Source of the DNA: Methylotuvimicrobium buryatense 5G
Lineage (GTDB): Bacteria; Pseudomonadota; Gammaproteobacteria; Methylococcales; Methylomonadaceae
DNA: 64,000 nt
Assembly: GCF_000341735.1 (NCBI RefSeq)
Contig: NZ_KB455575.1
Location: forward strand, 3,264,731-3,328,730
Direction of reading: 5' to 3'
Below the pieces are notes generated by a model that ran no database searches, was not told where the DNA came from, and was given only the letters and a program-made list of their open reading frames with translations. This document shows, in pieces, positions 8,154-49,157 of the stretch; position 1 is the first letter of the stretch, and every line of letters begins with the position of its first letter. Both the position numbers and the translations under genes were made by a program.

Positions 8154-8585
8154 TTAATTTCCCGCGAATACCCAGGAAATCACCGCATATCGAACTAATT
8201 TTCCAATAAAAATGAATACTATAGATGAATACAAAGATAATTTTAACCACCCTCCGGCAAAACAAAAACCATCTCCGATAACAGGCAACCATGAAAATAA
8301 AAGCGCCCATTGTCCCCATTTTCTAACCCACATTATCGCTTTTTGTTTATTAGTCTCTAACAATGATTCGATAGGATATTTCTTTGCCGCCAAATATCCT
8401 AAAAACCAAGTTGTTAAAGCACCTAAAGTATTGCCGATCGTCGCAATACCGACTAATAGTATCACTTGGTCTTGATGGTCCGACACCATCAGAGCCAGCA
8501 CGGCTTCAGAGCCGCCTGGAGCAATCGTCGACGATATAAAGGCACTAAAAAATAAACCCGCAAACCCTAGATAATCTTCCGGCAT
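8154..8585 (-). CDS. yqaA: YqaA family membrane protein (VTT/DedA-like)
   Basis: 143 residues, the normal length for E. coli YqaA, which it resembles throughout: FLSA/FISS-type N-terminus with a PGxSE motif (APGGSEAVL), GNTLGALT in the second helix region, the WxxKWGxWALLFSWLPVIGD segment and a LVRYA end. YqaA is a small relative of the SNARE-associated/DedA family of inner-membrane proteins; its function is not known. It starts just after the terminator at 8603-8634, so it probably has its own promoter or depends on read-through. Confidence 0.8.
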   Translation of the reverse strand: MPEDYLGFAGLFFSAFISSTIAPGGSEAVLALMVSDHQDQVILLVGIATIGNTLGALTTWFLGYLAAKKYPIESLLETNKQKAIMWVRKWGQWALLFSWLPVIGDGFCFAGGWLKLSLYSSIVFIFIGKLVRYAVISWVFAGN

Positions 8586-19399: not shown

Positions 19400-20275
19400 T
19401 CAACGTAATTTTAAATATCGATAACCGATATAGCAGAATAGCACTAGGAACATCCAAACTGTCACCAACGGACCGACCACACCGTCATAACTGCTCACCA
19501 AATAAAGATTTGGCGATTGGGGATCGACGTTGAATAAGGACTTGTTAAACTTTATCTGCCAAACCCAAGCGGTGTGACAGCCAATACATAAAGCCAAGCT
19601 GTTCGGCACCCTCGACCTAACGACTCCCAGAAAAGCTCCGACCATGAACAACGCCAAAAAGGCGGACAAAATATCGGGGTTCAAGACATTTAGCAGCGCC
19701 TCTTTCAACAAAATGAATCCGCTAAAAAAGGTAACCTCTTCATTCGCAAAACGGCTATGACTATCGAGAAAATGCAGTATGCCGTAATAAAAAGAACTGA
19801 TCAGTACCGCTCCGATCACCGGCATTCTTTGTTTCAGGCCGGCGAACAAAATGCCTCTAAAAATCGGCTCTTCGGCCAGCGATATCAATAAAGCCAATAA
19901 AAACCCAGTGACGAATTTTTGCAAAACCCAAGCAAAAGACCAGGATCGCGCCTCATCGATGACATGAACGCCCGTGAGGTAGAGCACGATAAAAACCGGT
20001 AGCAACGTCAAAACCCCTAAGCCTAACCCGTAACCGAACTGCCGCAGCATCGTAGCCTTATCGGCAAACCCCAGATCCCGGCCCTTGAGATGAAGCACCG
20101 CCATGACCGGAAAAATACTCAATACCAAGAATAACTTACCGACCTTACTGATGATTTTATGCAGCGGAAACTGATCGCCGAAACCCAGCCATATCAAATA
20201 GCCCAGCACGCAACCCAGCGACGCCGCCACCAACAAGACCGCCAGTGGCATTAGAATATAAACAAGATATTTCAT
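19400..20275 (-). CDS. CPBP (CAAX protease/Abi-like) membrane protein
   Basis: 291 residues with about eight hydrophobic segments. The family motif EEPIFRGILFAG (Glu-Glu near 139-140, Arg) and the second motif YGILHFLDSH with its His are present, followed by a third conserved region near LALFMVGAFLG. Members are intramembrane glutamic-type proteases related to Rce1; bacterial substrates are mostly unknown. The start overlaps the rsmE stop by 4 bp (ATGA), so it is translated from the rsmE transcript. Confidence 0.82.
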   Translation of the reverse strand: MKYLVYILMPLAVLLVAASLGCVLGYLIWLGFGDQFPLHKIISKVGKLFLVLSIFPVMAVLHLKGRDLGFADKATMLRQFGYGLGLGVLTLLPVFIVLYLTGVHVIDEARSWSFAWVLQKFVTGFLLALLISLAEEPIFRGILFAGLKQRMPVIGAVLISSFYYGILHFLDSHSRFANEEVTFFSGFILLKEALLNVLNPDILSAFLALFMVGAFLGVVRSRVPNSLALCIGCHTAWVWQIKFNKSLFNVDPQSPNLYLVSSYDGVVGPLVTVWMFLVLFCYIGYRYLKLR

Positions 20276-42866: not shown

Positions 42867-43259
42867 TTAGCTTTGTTCCCACGGTAGATTATGAAAGCGC
42901 CAACCTCCCAGGTTACCGCGATGTTTGTCGTCGTCGAGAGGTCCTTCGAAGCCTTCCAATATATTGATAGGACGAGAATACCCTGCCGCCTCCAAGGCAG
43001 CCGCCGCATCCAACGATCGCTGCCCGCTTCGGCACAGCAACAACACAGGCGCATTTTTATCGGGAACCGCTTCAGCTGCCTGCTCGACAAACGCGGTATT
43101 GACTTGCCAATCCGGATATTCTTTCCATGGAATATGAACCGCACCGATCGGGTGACCGACGTGGCTATATTCCATTTTGGTCCTGACATCGACCAGTACG
43201 GCGCTCTGGTCGGTTTGCAATAATTGCCAAGCTTGTTTCGGTTCTAAATTTTCTACCAT
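42867..43259 (-). CDS. Rhodanese-like domain protein
   Basis: 130 residues, a single rhodanese domain. The active-site loop LLLCRSGQRS contains the catalytic Cys; DVRTKMEYSHVGHPIGAVH is the entry motif. Single-domain rhodaneses carry sulfane sulfur to acceptors such as tRNA-thiolation or Fe-S enzymes. No signal peptide. Stands alone between typA and a methyltransferase gene. Confidence 0.9.
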   Translation of the reverse strand: MVENLEPKQAWQLLQTDQSAVLVDVRTKMEYSHVGHPIGAVHIPWKEYPDWQVNTAFVEQAAEAVPDKNAPVLLLCRSGQRSLDAAAALEAAGYSRPINILEGFEGPLDDDKHRGNLGGWRFHNLPWEQS

Positions 43260-43368: not shown

Positions 43369-43956
43369 TTATCTTTTCCTACCAATGAATTGAGCTTCAT
43401 TCCTGAGCCCTAAACCTATGCTGCCTACCGATCCGTTTTCCCGATAATAAATCAGCTTTAATTCGGCAAATAATTCCAATAATTCGCCCTCAGCTAATAA
43501 AAAGTCGGGATTATTCGGCCCTCTTTCAACGACTTTCTCGCGGGTATACGTCTGATAAAATAACAAACCGCCGGGATTCAACGCGCCTATTATCGCATCA
43601 CACAGACTCCGGTCAAGAAATCGACTGATAACAATGACATCGAAACGATAGCCGAAGAAAGATTTTTTATCGATAGCGCATTGCTTTGCCTGAATAGCCA
43701 AGCCTTTCTTGTCGGCATCATCTTGTAATTTTTCTACCGCTACGGTCGATATATCCCAGGCAAAAACAGCCAAGCCTGCCGTCGCAAGCAATCGAGCATT
43801 AGCGCCTAATCCGCAAGCCAAATCCAAAGCCGCACCATTTTGCGGCAACAAAAATGCATTACCCGATAAAACCTCAGCCGGCCGGTAATCCGAAATCTCG
43901 CCCAGCCGGTAAACGGCATCCCATTTTGCCGAAATTGCTGCCTTAGATTCCGTCAA
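43369..43956 (-). CDS. Class I SAM-dependent methyltransferase (TehB-like fold)
   Basis: 196 residues from a TTG at 43956, preceded by AGGCGG; the open frame continues upstream inside the LysR gene. SAM motif ALDLACGLGANARLLA and motif II VFAWDIS are clear; later FDVIVISRFLDR and NPGGLLFYQTY fit the catalytic fold. Substrate unknown; small thiopurine/tellurite-type (TehB) enzymes are the nearest pattern. It overlaps the 3' end of the LysR gene by 14 bp, so the two are probably coupled. Confidence 0.8.
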   Translation of the reverse strand: MTESKAAISAKWDAVYRLGEISDYRPAEVLSGNAFLLPQNGAALDLACGLGANARLLATAGLAVFAWDISTVAVEKLQDDADKKGLAIQAKQCAIDKKSFFGYRFDVIVISRFLDRSLCDAIIGALNPGGLLFYQTYTREKVVERGPNNPDFLLAEGELLELFAELKLIYYRENGSVGSIGLGLRNEAQFIGRKR

Positions 43957-44848
43957 TACCAATCCGCCTGGGCAACCATTCCTGTAAAAAATCCAAAAAC
44001 TTTCTGACCTTGGTAGACAAATATTTTCGATGCGGATAAACGGCATGTATCTCCAGGGGCGCCAATCCATAATCTTCCAATACCGGCATTAACTTACCTT
44101 TTTCGATATCCTTACCGACGATATACCTGGGTAACATCACCATTCCCAATCCCTCTATCGCGCCGACTCGAATCGGATCGGCCACGTTGGCGACTATGCG
44201 TCCTTTCACCTTGATCATCAAATCACCGTAAGGCCCCTTGAACCGCCATTGATCCCTCGGCGGAATCGACCAATTGACCAAACAACTATGATCGGTCAAG
44301 TCCTCGGGCGTTTTAGGAATGCCATATTGTTGAAAATAACCCGGAGCACCGCATACCACTAACGGAGAACTGGCGAGTTTGCGCGCAATCATACTGGAAT
44401 CTTCAACGCCGCCCAAATTTATCGCGAGATCAATGCCCTCATCAATCAGGTCACCCATATTGCCTTGCAAAATGATAGTCACCTCCAGATCGGGATACAA
44501 CTTGAGAAACTCCGATATCGCCGGCGCAATCTGGGTGGCGCCGATGACTTGCGGCGCACTGATTTTCAGCGTTCCGCGCGGCTCGGTCTGCAGTTGCGTT
44601 ACCGTAGCTTCCATTTCTTCGATATCATCCAATACCTGTTGGCAACGTTCCAGATACGATGCGCCCATTTCTGTCAGACTCAGACTTCGCGTGGTTCTAT
44701 TAAACAGACGGGTGCCTAAATGTTCTTCCAATTGCATGATATGTTTGGTTGCCATAGCTCTCGAAATATCCAAATCGCGCGCGCCGCCGGCAAAACTACC
44801 GGCCTTTGCCACCCGAACGAAAACATTCATACTGGTTAATTTGTCCAT
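43943..44848 (-). CDS. LysR family transcriptional regulator
   Basis: 301 residues. Winged helix at 1-60 (FVRVAKAGSFAGGARDLDIS, then LEEHLGTRLFNRTTRSLSLT) and a periplasmic-binding-like effector domain with SAPQVIGATQIAPA and DLAINLGG. The target is unknown; overlapping the methyltransferase suggests co-expression rather than the usual divergent target. Effector not predictable. Confidence 0.92.
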   Translation of the reverse strand: MDKLTSMNVFVRVAKAGSFAGGARDLDISRAMATKHIMQLEEHLGTRLFNRTTRSLSLTEMGASYLERCQQVLDDIEEMEATVTQLQTEPRGTLKISAPQVIGATQIAPAISEFLKLYPDLEVTIILQGNMGDLIDEGIDLAINLGGVEDSSMIARKLASSPLVVCGAPGYFQQYGIPKTPEDLTDHSCLVNWSIPPRDQWRFKGPYGDLMIKVKGRIVANVADPIRVGAIEGLGMVMLPRYIVGKDIEKGKLMPVLEDYGLAPLEIHAVYPHRKYLSTKVRKFLDFLQEWLPRRIGIDGI

Positions 44849-45126
44849 TTATCTCTCTTTGAGTTTCAAATGCTCGAGTCAACAGCTTAACCCGTTGCTC
44901 ACGATAATTCCGTTTTAGAATCGCTCCGCGACCACAATACACAACTACCGCTTGCCATTTATTTCATTTTTACTTAATATTCGCGGCGCTATAATAGCGC
45001 CTTAAGCGAAATTTCAAGACTCCATCTTCCAAATAAACGTCTCGATAGATTAGTCTCAAGAAAAAGAGACTATTTTGCATGCCTTTTGTTTCTAATCAAG
45101 AAACAATTTATCAACAAATCACCCTA
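44849..45126. other. Intergenic region, nothing recognised
   Basis: 278 AT-rich bases upstream of lysR (minus strand) and of the small RNA promoter (plus strand). It should contain the lysR promoter. I see no repeat or gene. Confidence 0.5.
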
Positions 45127-45154
45127 TTGTCTGCTGAAATAATCTCTGTATAGT
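45127..45154 (+). promoter_or_regulatory. Predicted promoter of the CCTCC small RNA
   Basis: -35 TTGTCT (45127-45132), 16-bp spacer, -10 TATAGT (45149-45154). It is the best sigma-70 match upstream of the terminator at 45377-45402 and would start a transcript near 45160. Confidence 0.6.
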
Positions 45155-45159
45155 ATTTC

Positions 45160-45402
45160 CCAAGTCCGCTGCAAAACTTCATTGCCTCACTAATAGTCAA
45201 CGATATCCATGCATCGGAGACCCCTGATTAGTTGAATTTAACTGCAACTTGCTGGAATGCCATCGAATTGATAGAAAATTCCTATGCAGATTCGTTTACC
45301 ATGTTCTAACCCTCCTGGTGTAGTACCAACAAGCAGTTCCTCCTCAAAACTCTGCTTGATTTTTCACCTCCCTCTGCCTCCAAGCATTGGGAGGTTTTTT
45401 TT
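45160..45402 (+). ncRNA. Candidate ~240-nt small RNA with four CCTCC motifs
   Basis: Between lysR and the dehydratase gene, both on the minus strand, the plus strand has a promoter, a structured body and a Rho-independent terminator (CCTCC 45377-45381 with GGAGG 45390-45394, then eight T). CCTCC occurs at 45311, 45339, 45367 and 45377. The second lies in the loop of a 7-bp hairpin CAAGCAG/CTGCTTG (45330-45336 with 45352-45358). ACTAAT/ATTAGT (45189-45194 with 45227-45232) can close a 5' hairpin. No good ORF. Exposed CCUCC could pair with Shine-Dalgarno sequences, as in known anti-SD small RNAs. No known family was recognised. Confidence 0.7.
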
Positions 45403-45408
45403 GCCTCT

Positions 45409-47406
45409 TTAATCATGCTCGGCTATTTTTTCTAAATAATTCGACAATGTATTATTCGCGGCAGAACTATTCGTCGAGCAGTTGAATAACCAATCGTCGA
45501 TATCGCATTGGGGCGAAAAACCCGATACCGCTTGTTTCAAAATCATCCGGACTTGCCTATAGTCGTCAACTAATGCAGCCTGCTCCATTGCCGACAACAA
45601 TTTTTCAAGCTCATTCCAAGCAATAACCTCTTCTTCGGCCCGCATGATACGCGGATGGTCGGTTACGGAAACATTGTCGCCTATCAATAGCTCTTCATAG
45701 AGCTTTTCTCCCGATCGCAAACCAGTATATACAATCTCGATATCGCCGTCAGGTCGCGCATCACCCTTGACCGTTAAACCGCTAAGCTTGATCATACGTT
45801 TCGCCAAGTCCAAAATCTTGACCGGTTCGCCCATGTCCAAGACAAAAACATCGCCGCCCTGACCCATTGCTCCTGCCTGTATCACCAATTGGGCAGCTTC
45901 CGGTATCGTCATGAAATAGCGAATGATTTTCGGATCGGTCACAGTCACCGGCCCGCCCTTGGCAATTTGTTCACGGAATAACGGCACCACAGAGCCCGAC
46001 GAGCCCAACACATTGCCGAAACGCACCATCGTAAAACGCGTTGTCCGCAGCTTTTGGTTTTCAATGCTTAAGGCCTGCAGAATCAGCTCGGCAAAGCGCT
46101 TGGTCGCCCCCATCGTATTGGTTGGACGTACCGCCTTATCGGTCGAAATTAATACGAAAGTCTCTACATTCGCTTCGATAGCGGCGCGGGCGGTATGTAA
46201 AGTGCCGAATATATTATTCCGTACCGCTTCGCCCGGGTTTTTCTCAACCATCGGCACATGCTTATAAGCGGCGGCATGATAGATCGTTTGCACACCGAAT
46301 GCCCGGCAAATTTTTTCTACTCGACTCCCGTTAACCACCGACCCGAGAACGGCAATGATTTGCGTATCGACAACATCCGATTTTGCCAAATAAAGATTTA
46401 ACTCCCTCTCGATCTCATAGAGCGCAAACTCGCATCGCTCGAATAAAATCAATGTCTTTGGTTGCAATTGAATAATTTGTCTGCACAACTCCGAGCCGAT
46501 CGAACCGCCGGCACCGGTGACCATAACCTTTTTCCCGGCCGTATTGGCGGTCAATAAAGTCTGATCCGGAACCACGGCATCCCGACCCAGCAAATCGGCT
46601 ATATCCACCTCTTGCAATTCATCGAACGTCACCTTCCCTTGCGCAATATCGGACATTCCCGGCATTGACCGAACATGGACCGGAAAAGGCTCCAATAGGC
46701 GAATAATCTCGCTCCTCCGGCTTCTGGCAACCGACGGCATCGCCAACAGAATATCGGTAACGGCAAATTTATCGATTAAATAACTTAACGCGGTAAACGG
46801 ATGAATCTTAACGCCGTTAACTTTTTGCCCATGCAACATGCCATTGTCGTCAATAAATGCAATCGGCCGAAAATCATGGCCATGTGCTAATGCCGAAGAC
46901 AATTGCACACCTGCACTTCCTGCCCCATAAATAATGACATTATTGCGGCGACACAATTCCGGATCGGCACTCCTTGCCATACGCGCATATTGCTCGCCAA
47001 ACCACCATCGCGCCATAAACCGGCTCCCGCCGGCAAAGAACAATATGATCAACCAATTCAGCGGTGGCACCGTTCTCGGCACCAACCCGACTCTCAATTG
47101 AAATACTAAGGCGGCAAATATCAACGCATACAAAGTGACCGCTTGAACGATCGTCGCTAACGCTCTGACGCCGATATAACGAATAATCGCCCGGTACAGA
47201 CCCATTCTGATAAAAATCGGAATGACAATACAGGGAGCCAATACGAACAAAACCCAAACACGGTCTTCAGGAACATAAAACTCACCAAAACGCAAAGAAA
47301 ACGCCAGCCACAGCGCGAAGACCGCAAAAAAAACGTCCGCAGTCATCGTTATCGCCGCTTTTTTAGGGCGCGATAATCTTAAAAACCAGTCCGCTAAATT
47401 TTCCAT
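45409..47406 (-). CDS. wbpM: Membrane-bound UDP-sugar 4,6-dehydratase (WbpM/FlaA1/PglF type)
   Basis: 665 residues from ATG 47406 (GGAAGGG upstream); an earlier start adds 14 residues. About four N-terminal membrane helices, a first Rossmann fold with GAGSAGVQL, and a catalytic SDR domain with VTGAGGSIGSE, HAAAYKHVP and STDKAVRPTNTMGATKR. Such enzymes convert UDP-GlcNAc to a 4-keto-6-deoxy sugar, the entry to QuiNAc/FucNAc or bacillosamine-type sugars. This is the promoter-distal end of the glycan cluster. The exact product cannot be read from sequence. Confidence 0.88.
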   Translation of the reverse strand: MENLADWFLRLSRPKKAAITMTADVFFAVFALWLAFSLRFGEFYVPEDRVWVLFVLAPCIVIPIFIRMGLYRAIIRYIGVRALATIVQAVTLYALIFAALVFQLRVGLVPRTVPPLNWLIILFFAGGSRFMARWWFGEQYARMARSADPELCRRNNVIIYGAGSAGVQLSSALAHGHDFRPIAFIDDNGMLHGQKVNGVKIHPFTALSYLIDKFAVTDILLAMPSVARSRRSEIIRLLEPFPVHVRSMPGMSDIAQGKVTFDELQEVDIADLLGRDAVVPDQTLLTANTAGKKVMVTGAGGSIGSELCRQIIQLQPKTLILFERCEFALYEIERELNLYLAKSDVVDTQIIAVLGSVVNGSRVEKICRAFGVQTIYHAAAYKHVPMVEKNPGEAVRNNIFGTLHTARAAIEANVETFVLISTDKAVRPTNTMGATKRFAELILQALSIENQKLRTTRFTMVRFGNVLGSSGSVVPLFREQIAKGGPVTVTDPKIIRYFMTIPEAAQLVIQAGAMGQGGDVFVLDMGEPVKILDLAKRMIKLSGLTVKGDARPDGDIEIVYTGLRSGEKLYEELLIGDNVSVTDHPRIMRAEEEVIAWNELEKLLSAMEQAALVDDYRQVRMILKQAVSGFSPQCDIDDWLFNCSTNSSAANNTLSNYLEKIAEHD

Positions 47407-47533
47407 GCTCTTTAACCCTTCCAAAATGAAACTCACCGAATTGCTCAACGTGCCGGTTATACCTGATCCGAATCGAAGCTGCTAACATCAAGTATTTCCG
47501 ATCGAAAAACTTGCATGCTGATCGGCAGTTTTG

Positions 47534-49090
47534 TCATACACCGGCTCCGAGCGTTTCGATGTCGAACCCGACTACCGAACGACTTTCCTTGCTGAATTCA
47601 ACGCCGATCAAATGTATCGGTATCCTTTCGGCTTTATATTTCTCGGTGTAGTTCTTATTCTTCAATTGCCGTAAGGCTTTGCCTTCCGGCACCAGTTCCA
47701 CAACCTTGAATTCGAATAGATAGATTTGCCCGTTGAAATGCACTGTCATGTCGATACGGCCATGATTGGTCGCGTCTTCGAGCGTGACGGTCAAGCCCAA
47801 CGCCGCGAAGTAGCTATAGAACACGGTCGCATAGTATCCTTCGTATTGCGCGATCGGGTTGTTGCGGTACCAATCGTGCGGAATGCCGGTGTAAAAGGCC
47901 GTGAATAAGTTTTGAAGACCTTCGAAATCGTTAACCAGCAATAAATCGTATAATTGACCGGCCTGCCTGCCGTAACGTGCCGGATCGACGGTCAAGGCTT
48001 GCAGCAGAACGCCGTTCAGACTCGCCTTCACTTCCAGATTCGGATACCCCAATGTCACTTGCGTCATCCCGGGTAAATTCCGCGACGATACGATTGTCAA
48101 ATAACCGGTTTGGAACAATAAAGCTTCGCTGGCGATATGATCGACATCGAAAGTCGACAGTAAGGTTTCGGTCGCCAACAGTTTTTCGAAATCCGGCGTG
48201 AAAAAACCCCGTTGCATCAGCAGATCCACCAAAAAGGTCGGCGTGCCGGTCTCGAACCAGTAAGGTTTGAATTCACGCGTATCGAACAGAAGCAATAGAT
48301 CAAAAGGATTATAAACCGCCTCGCCCAGCCAATTGTAACCATTGTACCAATCCCTGATTTTGCCCCGTTCAAGGCCTTGCAATTCCGGCGCGAATACCGT
48401 GTCGAGATCGGCTTCGGTATAACCGCATACCGCCGAATAGCGTTTGTCGACGGTGATATCCTGTAGATTATTCAAGCCCGAAAACAAGCTAACCTTGCTG
48501 AATTTGGATACGCCGGTCAAAAACGCAAAGCGGATATGCGCATCTTGCCCCTTGATCACCGAGTATAGATTGCGCAAGCCATCGCACATCTGCCGGGCGA
48601 TGTCCGGGTTAGTAATGTTGTCGAGTATCGGTTTGTCGTATTCGTCGATTAATACAACCGCGCGTTGACCGTATTTTTGATGCGCCAACCTGATCATTTC
48701 TGAAAAATTACCGGAAATACTCGGCTGTTGAGGATCGATATCCAATTGTTTTCTATTGAAATCCAGAATTTCTCCGATTTTCTCATCCAAATCGGCTCGG
48801 CTCTGCAGCACACCTTCGGCAAAACTAATCCGAATCACCGGATACTGCTTAGCCCAATCCCATTTATCATGACAATAAAGCCCTTGAAACAATACTTCTT
48901 TGCCGGCAAATAATTCGGCCAGCGTGTCGAGAAACAAAGATTTACCAAAGCGCCTCGGTCGCGACAGAAAATAATATTTACCTTCGACCGCAAGCTTCAA
49001 CGCATAAGCTGTCTTGTCGACATAGTAACAATCGTCTTCGCGTATTTCGCAGAAGGTTTGTATACCGATCGGAAGCTTTTTTCGCGTCAT
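47534..49090 (-). CDS. AAA-ATPase-like protein with C-terminal PD-(D/E)XK nuclease domain
   Basis: 518 residues from ATG 49090 (frame opens at GTG 49102). N-terminus LPIGIQTFCEIR, then FLSRPRRFGKSLFLDTLAEL (a Walker-A variant), VLIDEYDKPILDN as Walker B. The C-terminal IDMTVHFNGQIYLFEFKV shows the D...E-x-K pattern of PD-(D/E)XK folds. This multi-copy family is widespread with no settled function and is often linked to mobile DNA. It sits inside a glycan cluster with no sugar-related motif, so it is probably an inserted gene. Confidence 0.83.
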   Translation of the reverse strand: MTRKKLPIGIQTFCEIREDDCYYVDKTAYALKLAVEGKYYFLSRPRRFGKSLFLDTLAELFAGKEVLFQGLYCHDKWDWAKQYPVIRISFAEGVLQSRADLDEKIGEILDFNRKQLDIDPQQPSISGNFSEMIRLAHQKYGQRAVVLIDEYDKPILDNITNPDIARQMCDGLRNLYSVIKGQDAHIRFAFLTGVSKFSKVSLFSGLNNLQDITVDKRYSAVCGYTEADLDTVFAPELQGLERGKIRDWYNGYNWLGEAVYNPFDLLLLFDTREFKPYWFETGTPTFLVDLLMQRGFFTPDFEKLLATETLLSTFDVDHIASEALLFQTGYLTIVSSRNLPGMTQVTLGYPNLEVKASLNGVLLQALTVDPARYGRQAGQLYDLLLVNDFEGLQNLFTAFYTGIPHDWYRNNPIAQYEGYYATVFYSYFAALGLTVTLEDATNHGRIDMTVHFNGQIYLFEFKVVELVPEGKALRQLKNKNYTEKYKAERIPIHLIGVEFSKESRSVVGFDIETLGAGV

Positions 49091-49157
49091 TTTGTTAAGC
49101 ACTATTTAATAAAACGGTAGGCCGGATTAGCAAAGCGTCATACGCAAACATCATGAT

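What the first reader, a model, noticed from the sequence alone, without database searches (positions are those of the whole stretch)
45127..45402. Candidate small RNA with four CCTCC motifs, one presented in a hairpin loop
Seen in sequence: TTGTCT-16 bp-TATAGT promoter, CAAGCAG/CTGCTTG hairpin with TTCCTCCTC in its loop, four CCTCC motifs, then a terminator with eight T, in a gap between two genes on the opposite strand. Family knowledge: exposed CCUCC loops of small RNAs (for example Rhizobiales and Rhodobacter anti-SD RNAs) can block ribosome binding sites. Inference: a trans-acting translational repressor, possibly linked to the glycan cluster beside it. The reverse-strand reading carries GGAGG motifs like a CsrA sponge, but the T-run favours the plus strand.
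Basis: partly seen in the sequence, partly recalled or inferred. Interest (0 to 1): 0.8.

Follow-up and report, generated by a model that had tools for sequence, protein, structure and literature searches.

The report
Acid-regulator-linked small RNA in methanotrophs
A stretch between two genes in a methane-eating bacterium encodes a conserved small RNA, probably switched by a weak-acid stress regulator, that was once the tail of a messenger RNA for a tiny membrane protein and in several lineages has outlived that protein.

Summary
In detail: promoter, CCUCC-loop hairpin and T8 terminator are where stated. Comparative evidence makes the RNA real: a covariance model finds it in 205 of 237 family genomes (28 of 29 genera), 14 of 15 pairs show compensatory change, and 0 of 24 genomes of other families of the order match. 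Only three of the four CCTCC motifs are shared with sister species; two are unpaired. The RNA is divergent to a LysR-methyltransferase-rhodanese operon matching watR-smtM-rstM of Methylomonas DH-1, and its promoter carries the published WatR motif core (TTGTT-N11-AACAA), exactly 63 nt before the -10 box in 59 of 96 loci. In 75 of 98 loci the RNA follows a ~50-codon membrane-protein-like ORF resembling watS. In the window's genus and other lineages that ORF is undetectable while RNA and promoter remain (fewest changes on a LysR tree: 7). Most likely it is a WatR-controlled trans-acting sRNA that pairs with ribosome-binding sites. Expression and targets are unproven; pairing with the neighbouring capD start, seen only in this genus, is a weak candidate.

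The parts
45086..45106 (+). WatR-type operator TTGTTTCTAATCAAGAAACAA (TTGTT-N11-AACAA)
   Evidence: Matches the core of the published WatR ChIP motif (PMC10355033 section 6); found; a box of at least 8 of 10 matches starts exactly 63 nt before the -10 box in 59 of 96 nonredundant loci
45127..45154 (+). Promoter: -35 TTGTCT, -10 TATAGT
   Evidence: TGTATAGT found upstream in 44 of 60 distinct loci scanned (two of the other 16 had no upstream sequence)
45161..45402 (+). Predicted transcript of about 242 nt (start inferred from the -10 box, end at the T run)
   Evidence: transcript not observed
45240..45283 (+). Possible eroded remnant of the watS-like ORF (frame reads T-A-T-C-W-N-A-I-E-L-I-E-N-S)
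   Evidence: CTGCAACTTGC lies 70 nt before the CTCC of the 5' element, against 69 nt in L016 (same 11 bases) and 67 in L060 (one base different), where an eroded 3' half of the ORF is readable. The ORF profile gives no match here at E up to 1, so inferred
45282..45402 (+). Conserved RNA block; covariance model R1 covers 45302-45402
   Evidence: 18-20 of 20 columns invariant per bin in 4 species of the genus, leader 60-75%
45307..45326 (+). 5' single-stranded element AACCCTCCTGGTGTAGTACC (anti-SD-like)
   Evidence: CTCC in 84 and full CCTCC in 78 of 96 nonredundant loci
45330..45358 (+). Hairpin 1 with UCCUCCUC in the loop
   Evidence: 6 of 7 pairs show compensatory change; CTCC in the loop of 81 and full CCTCC in 57 of 96 loci
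45366..45402 (+). Intrinsic terminator, CCTCCC/GGGAGG stem and T8
43943..44848 (-). LysR-family regulator, probable watR ortholog, divergent neighbour
   Evidence: Pfam LysR domains; operon content and order as watR-smtM-rstM; divergent in 76 of 98 loci, 64-82% identity outside the genus
43369..44070 (-). SAM-dependent methyltransferase (smtM-like), start uncertain
42867..43259 (-). Rhodanese-domain protein (rstM-like)
   Evidence: Pfam Rhodanese 60.2 bits, cut-off 22.2
47403..47422 (-). Script-chosen translation start of the capD-like gene (45409-47406), candidate lineage-specific pairing partner of 45300-45315
   Evidence: Pfam Polysacc_synt_2

Best explanation
45161-45402 encodes a stand-alone regulatory RNA of about 240 nt (functional part about 100-120 nt at the 3' end), transcribed from a WatR-controlled promoter divergent to watR. 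It descends from the 3' UTR of a watS-like small-membrane-protein mRNA; in this genus the ORF has eroded and the RNA remains. It most likely works as an Hfq-class trans-acting sRNA: the 5' element ACCUCCUGGUGU and the UCCUCCUC hairpin loop pair with Shine-Dalgarno regions of target mRNAs and block translation under weak-acid stress. Shown by sequence: conserved RNA structure, conserved promoter with operator at a mostly fixed spacing, synteny with the LysR gene, repeated absence of the ORF with RNA retained. Inferred: transcription, WatR control in this species, RNase E processing, Hfq binding, base-pairing repression, acid-stress role.
For: Covariance model R1: 205 of 237 family genomes, 160 of 173 high-quality ones, 28 of 29 genera (these counts include the genomes the model was built from). 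97.3% of cells paired, 14 of 15 pairs with compensatory change, 174 both-side cells against 28.4 in shuffles, 0 of 500 reach it. CTCC in the 5' element of 84 and in the loop of 81 of 96 loci while stems vary. Operator start to -10 exactly 63 nt in 59 of 96 loci, 45 with and 14 without the ORF; a shuffled control gave one box/-10 pair in 98 upstream stretches. LysR divergent beside the RNA in 76 of 98 loci; LysR, methyltransferase and rhodanese in the order of the DH-1 watR operon. ORF absent in 17 of 70 rows of the LysR tree, fewest changes 7. Hfq gene present.
Against: No RNA-seq or binding data here. No long perfect target: in the genus ACACCAGGAGGN{3,10}ATG hits only the RNA locus itself. 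32 of 237 family genomes, 13 of 173 high-quality ones, gave no match under strict filters. 22 of 98 loci show no LysR gene in the flank held. 22 of 96 loci lack a box/-10 pair in my scan and 15 have other spacings; many loci are close relatives, so the counts are not independent. In the window's genome the strict motif is hardly more frequent than its reversed control (8 against 6). The DH-1 paper places WatR sites over the -35 box of watS promoters, whereas here the box centre is near -65. In a second genus without the ORF (g6, two close species) the leader is as conserved as the RNA. WatS sequences of the paper (a figure) were not seen, so identity of the ORF with WatS is inferred.
Confidence: 0.62

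Rival explanations
1. The conserved block acts only in cis, as a 3' UTR/terminator that stabilises the watS-type mRNA; in the window it is a leftover.
For: In 75 of 98 loci it follows the ORF, typically by about 20 nt; shorter versions of the 5' element plus terminator follow some other watS-like paralogs in group g11.
Against: RNA and promoter are kept where the ORF is gone; in the window's genus the RNA block is nearly invariant and the former coding part is 60-75% invariant; loop sequence is conserved, which a stabilising hairpin does not need.
Confidence: 0.15
2. The RNA binds a protein or the ribosome (decoy of the 16S anti-SD tail or protein sponge) and does not pair with mRNAs.
For: The 5' element ACCUCCU equals the anti-SD tail of 16S rRNA (recalled); no consistent mRNA target was found.
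Against: Two separate C/U-rich seeds and a T8 terminator are the usual make-up of Hfq-class sRNAs (recalled); the reach of the target search was small.
Confidence: 0.12
3. In the window's genus the RNA mainly represses the neighbouring capD-like gene: RNA 45300-45315 pairs across the SD and start codon of capD.
For: Predicted -31.9 kcal/mol in the window, 1 of 200 dinucleotide shuffles as low; -34.3, -31.9 and -29.6 in three sister species, 0 of 200 each. Best of 52 script-chosen window gene starts and two paralogs. RNA side invariant in the species aligned.
Against: In the fifth species (L202) pairing is weaker (-29.1, 6 of 200; seed -14.3 against -20.0). All 8 loci scored outside the genus are at background (35 to 194 of 200); of 24 two reach 3 of 100 or fewer. 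capD is 94-97% identical within the genus, so conservation says little; start codons were chosen by script.
Confidence: 0.2
4. Minus-strand RNA with GGAGG motifs, acting as a CsrA sponge.
For: The minus strand also folds (z = -2.7, 2 of 200 shuffles) and exposes GGA motifs.
Against: No minus-strand promoter-like site or terminator in 45080-45420; plus-strand promoter conserved; 52 G-U against 11 A-C cells favour the plus strand.
Confidence: 0.03

Closest known systems
watS1-watS5 loci of Methylomonas sp. DH-1 (WatR regulon; PMC10355033)
   Same: WatR-type operator, ORFs of about 50 codons with a hydrophobic stretch (by eye), several copies per genome in group g11, which I take to be Methylomonas (2-10 in 37 of 37 genomes).
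   Different: That paper treats them as peptides: its main text has no hit for 'sRNA', 'untranslated' or 'UTR', and 'small RNA' only in the reference list. Here the ORF is gone and a structured RNA remains. Paper sequences not seen.
CcsR1-4 RNAs with CcaF1 (CIN1/cuckoo locus) of Rhodobacter and alpha-r14/NfeR1 of rhizobia (PMC10253847, PMC10746234: passages seen)
   Same: A small-protein gene followed by CcsR RNAs that serve in stress defence (Rhodobacter); anti-SD motifs in unpaired hairpin regions (alpha-r14).
   Different: Alpha-r14 members have three hairpins each with CCUCCUCCC; here one loop with UCCUCCUC and a different 5' element. Different protein (no DUF1127 hit), regulator and class; no Rfam match. 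Convergent at most.
3' UTR-derived sRNAs such as CpxQ and SdhX (review PMC9438474: passages seen)
   Same: In ORF-bearing relatives the RNA shares the 3' end and terminator of a stress-type mRNA.
   Different: Here the mRNA's ORF has been lost repeatedly and the promoter now drives the RNA alone; processing not shown.
NsiR1 (RF02399)
   Same: Weak hit over the 3' part, 25.0 bits, E 0.0051.
   Different: Below the gathering score of 39; the match is 45353-45402, mainly the terminator.

Membership tests
alpha-r14 / cuckoo / CcsR RNAs | Three hairpins each with CCUCCUCCC in unpaired regions (PMC10746234) | tested here: not met
   The conserved core has one non-terminator hairpin, loop UCCUCCUC, and no CCUCCUCCC
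alpha-r14 / cuckoo / CcsR RNAs | Linked DUF1127 small protein (PMC10253847) | tested here: not met
   A linked 50-aa protein (one real representative; a composite one) hits only DUF6949 below its cut-off (E 0.00092, 19.8 against 28.7 bits) and no DUF1127
Any Rfam 15 family | Score at or above gathering | tested here: not met
   (best 25.0 against 39 bits, NsiR1)
WatR regulon | TTGTT-N11-AACAA operator upstream of the promoter | tested here: met
WatR regulon | WatR present, operon watR-smtM-rstM | tested here: met
   orthology by gene order and domain content, DH-1 protein sequence not compared
WatR regulon | Binding by WatR and watR-dependent expression | not testable with these tools
   needs ChIP or RNA-seq
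3' UTR-derived sRNA | Lies at the 3' end of an mRNA and shares its terminator | tested here: met
   Met by position in 75 of 98 loci, those with the ORF; not in the window's genus, where the ORF is not detectable
3' UTR-derived sRNA | RNase E processing and Hfq binding | not testable with these tools
   Hfq gene present
CsrB/RsmY-type sponge | Repeated GGA in loops of the transcribed strand | tested here: not met
   On the plus strand the core 45302-45402 has GGA only in the terminator stem; the variable leader has two more

The most novel reading that the evidence does not exclude
watS-type acid-stress genes of methanotrophs are two-output genes: one transcript gives a small membrane peptide and an anti-SD regulatory RNA. 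In several lineages independently the coding half was lost and a pure sRNA remained, and in the window's genome the two outputs are split between loci (two peptide paralogs without the RNA, the RNA without the peptide). This is an observable, repeated conversion of an mRNA into an sRNA gene, and part of the acetate tolerance assigned to WatS peptides may belong to RNAs of this kind.
Probability: 0.4. Interest if true: 0.8.

Novelty: new variant of a known kind. Interest (0 to 1): 0.64.

Why it matters
A family-wide small RNA of gammaproteobacterial methanotrophs appears undescribed in the papers I could search, and it comes with a candidate regulator and signal (WatR, weak acids). The series of lineages with and without the ORF makes the question 'how do sRNA genes arise from mRNAs' directly testable, and it suggests re-reading the published watS experiments with the 3' RNA in mind. 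Acid tolerance of these bacteria also matters for making organic acids from methane.

Tried and rejected
Long perfect targets: ACACCAGGAGGN{3,10}ATG in 37 genomes gave 10 hits (reversed control: 1). Five are the RNA locus itself in the window's genus, one is the RNA locus of G011, and four lie elsewhere (G016, G039, G045, G047), which I did not examine. Target ranking used 52 script-chosen gene starts of the window plus two watS-like paralogs; no genome-wide prediction was made. watR (-9.7 kcal/mol) and the two watS-like paralogs (-13.6, -11.0) do not stand out. CapD as a family-wide target: rejected, no consistent signal outside the genus. NsiR1 membership: rejected. Minus-strand CsrA sponge: rejected. 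Peptide-coding core: judged unlikely because the core has indels of many lengths and covarying stems; no coding test was run. Strict WatR motif genome-wide gave 8 sites in G000 against 6 for the reversed control, so the motif alone has little power; position and conservation carry the argument. Rows dropped before counts: 98 RNA matches reduced to 95 distinct rows and 96 nonredundant loci; LysR rows under 270 aa or identical left out, 70 kept; four of the 15 new regions gave no core by my pattern and one no capD match.

Full report
OBSERVATION. Four plus-strand CCTCC in 276 nt are well above the 0.22 expected from the window's own density (arithmetic). The 3' part (45290-45402) folds better than 200 of 200 dinucleotide shuffles; the whole 242 nt is less striking (6 of 200 as low). 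The fourth CCTCC is not shared by sister species, and the third is in the terminator stem, so two motifs are both conserved and predicted unpaired.

IT IS A CONSERVED RNA. The 278 nt from the -35 box on is found in 5 of 6 genomes of the genus, the window's own included. The 3' part is found by BLAST in 28 of 61 genomes at E up to 0.1 (two of these, in other families, are marginal at E 0.07) and by covariance model in 205 of 237 family genomes, 160 of 173 of high quality, 28 of 29 genera. These counts include the genomes from which the model was built. With laxer filters 28 of 29 selected genomes matched, including two that the strict run had missed. None of 24 genomes of other families of the order matched. 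The 41 named hits of a DNA pattern are records titled as Methylococcaceae, Methylococcales or genera of that order, plus one titled only Gammaproteobacteria (the placing of some genera in the order is recalled). One genome of the window's genus has the contig length of the record 'Methylomicrobium sp. wino1', so I take the genus to be Methylotuvimicrobium and the family Methylomonadaceae (recalled names). On 98 aligned matches (95 distinct) 97.3% of cells are paired, 14 of 15 pairs have compensatory changes, and no shuffle of 500 and no slid version reaches any of the five measures. The alignment was fitted to the model, which leans towards the structure. CTCC is present in the 5' element of 84, in the hairpin loop of 81 and in both of 71 of 96 nonredundant loci; full CCTCC in 78 and 57. 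No Rfam family matches at its gathering score (best weak hit NsiR1).

STRAND. The promoter and T8 terminator lie on the plus strand. In the paired columns there are 52 G-U, 11 A-C and 27 other unpaired cells, as expected if the plus strand folds (same lean of the alignment).

CONTEXT: THE watR LOCUS. The divergent neighbour is a LysR regulator followed by a methyltransferase and a rhodanese-domain protein. In Methylomonas sp. DH-1 the operon watR-smtM-rstM is LysR, SAM methyltransferase, rhodanese-related (PMC6767647, passages). A LysR homolog lies divergent beside the RNA in 76 of 98 loci, at 64-82% identity outside the window's genus; the other 22 show none in the flank held, mostly 1.5 kb. 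WatR binds ATTGTT-N11-AACAA in DH-1 (PMC10355033, section 6). The window has an exact TTGTT-N11-AACAA at 45086-45106. In 59 of 96 loci a box of at least 8 of 10 matches starts exactly 63 nt before the -10 hexamer; 15 loci have other spacings, 22 no such pair, and a shuffled control gave one pair in 98. Many loci are close relatives, so these are not independent counts. The box centre is then near -65, the usual recognition site of LysR regulators (recalled). The DH-1 paper describes sites over the -35 box (section 10), so the position differs from its description.

ORIGIN FROM A SMALL-PROTEIN mRNA. In 75 of 98 loci an ORF of about 50 codons (consensus MNxFxKDIxIGLLFIAGIWSFISGQFIISTVLFASAAIYSNIVxRxxLxx) lies between this promoter and the RNA, ending typically about 20 nt before the RNA. 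It resembles the watS genes of DH-1: about 50 residues, several copies, WatR-type promoters (PMC10355033 abstract and section 10). All 37 genomes of group g11 have 2-10 copies; I take g11 to be Methylomonas because one of its genomes has the chromosome size of DH-1, no name being shown. I did not see the paper's WatS sequences, so the identity of the ORF with WatS is inferred. In 23 of 98 loci, the window's genus among them, the ORF is not detectable; in a LysR tree 17 of 70 rows lack it and the fewest changes of state are 7 (quick tree). The count cannot tell gain from loss; loss is argued from remnants in frame and place (L016, L060, and more weakly the window) and from groups in which one species has the ORF and a near one does not (L014/L015, L151/L154). 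In the window's genome two watS-like ORFs exist elsewhere with the same promoter type but without this RNA downstream; one has a degenerate trace of the 5' element. Within the genus (four species) the RNA block has 18-20 of 20 columns invariant per bin, the promoter region 80-90%, the former coding part 60-75%. The contrast is similar in g29 but absent in g6, where two close species are compared. Of 11 further watS-like loci fetched from g11, four carry a short version of the 5' element ([AG]CCTCCTCGTTGT; L192, L193, L195, L198) soon after the stop codon, one a weak trace (L194), and six do not (L190, L191, L196, L197, L199, L200).

HOW IT PROBABLY WORKS. Two conserved unpaired C/U-rich segments, a T8 terminator and a present Hfq fit a trans-acting sRNA that covers ribosome-binding sites (family knowledge). 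No target is proven. An extension of the SD match to 11 bases finds in the genus only the locus itself read backwards. Among 52 script-chosen gene starts of the window and two paralogs, the strongest predicted partner is the neighbouring capD-like gene. The pairing reaches -29.6 to -34.3 kcal/mol in 4 of 5 species of the genus (at most 1 of 200 shuffles as low), is weaker in the fifth (-29.1, 6 of 200), and is at background in all 8 loci scored outside the genus; in an earlier set 2 of 24 loci outside the genus reached 3 of 100 or fewer. I treat it as a candidate of low weight.

COMPARISON. It works like anti-SD sRNAs and like 3' UTR-derived sRNAs, but it is not a member of the alpha-r14/CcsR family: the three-hairpin CCUCCUCCC layout and the DUF1127 partner are not met. 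The parallel is still notable: Rhodobacter ccaF1-CcsR is also a small-protein gene followed by stress-linked RNAs (passages of PMC10253847; the CCUCC motif of CcsR is recalled). I found no report of this RNA; searches were in an open-access library only. Of the DH-1 WatR paper I saw the abstract, sections 3, 6, 7, 10, 12, 15 and 20 and search passages; its main text has no hit for sRNA, untranslated or UTR; supplements were not read. Of the other papers cited I saw passages only.

VERDICT. A real, family-wide, structured small RNA (very likely), under a WatR-type promoter (likely), acting by base pairing (plausible, untested), with an unusual and testable history.

Noticed in passing
L035 1452-1540(+), L027 1503-1594(-): Sibling RNAs without the small ORF or a LysR neighbour in the flank held: shared element CATGTACCTCCTCGTAGTGTG and the same type of terminator, but a different middle hairpin.
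   Followed up: partly
G074, G075, G033, G076 (3 matches each), G133 and G173 (4 each): Several genomes hold 2-4 copies of the RNA; in one genus the extra copies L176 and L177 carry the small ORF too, so the ORF-RNA unit seems to duplicate as a whole.
   Followed up: partly
window 45300-45326 read on the minus strand: The complement of the RNA's 5' flank resembles the start of capD (GGGTTA..GA[AG]CATGG), as if by an inverted duplication; this could explain the predicted pairing.
   Followed up: no
G149:C1 (4,860,954 bases): Contig size fits the 4.86 Mb chromosome of Methylomonas sp. DH-1; if it is that strain, the small ORF with the RNA lies beside its watR-like gene (L126, L189).
   Followed up: partly
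window 47534-49102(-): AAA-ATPase-like / PD-(D/E)XK nuclease protein (Pfam PF09820, PF08011) between capD and the next glycan-type gene, perhaps an insertion.
   Followed up: partly
window 8343-8363 and 19829-19849: Two further exact TTGTT-N11-AACAA sites; promoter context not examined.
   Followed up: no
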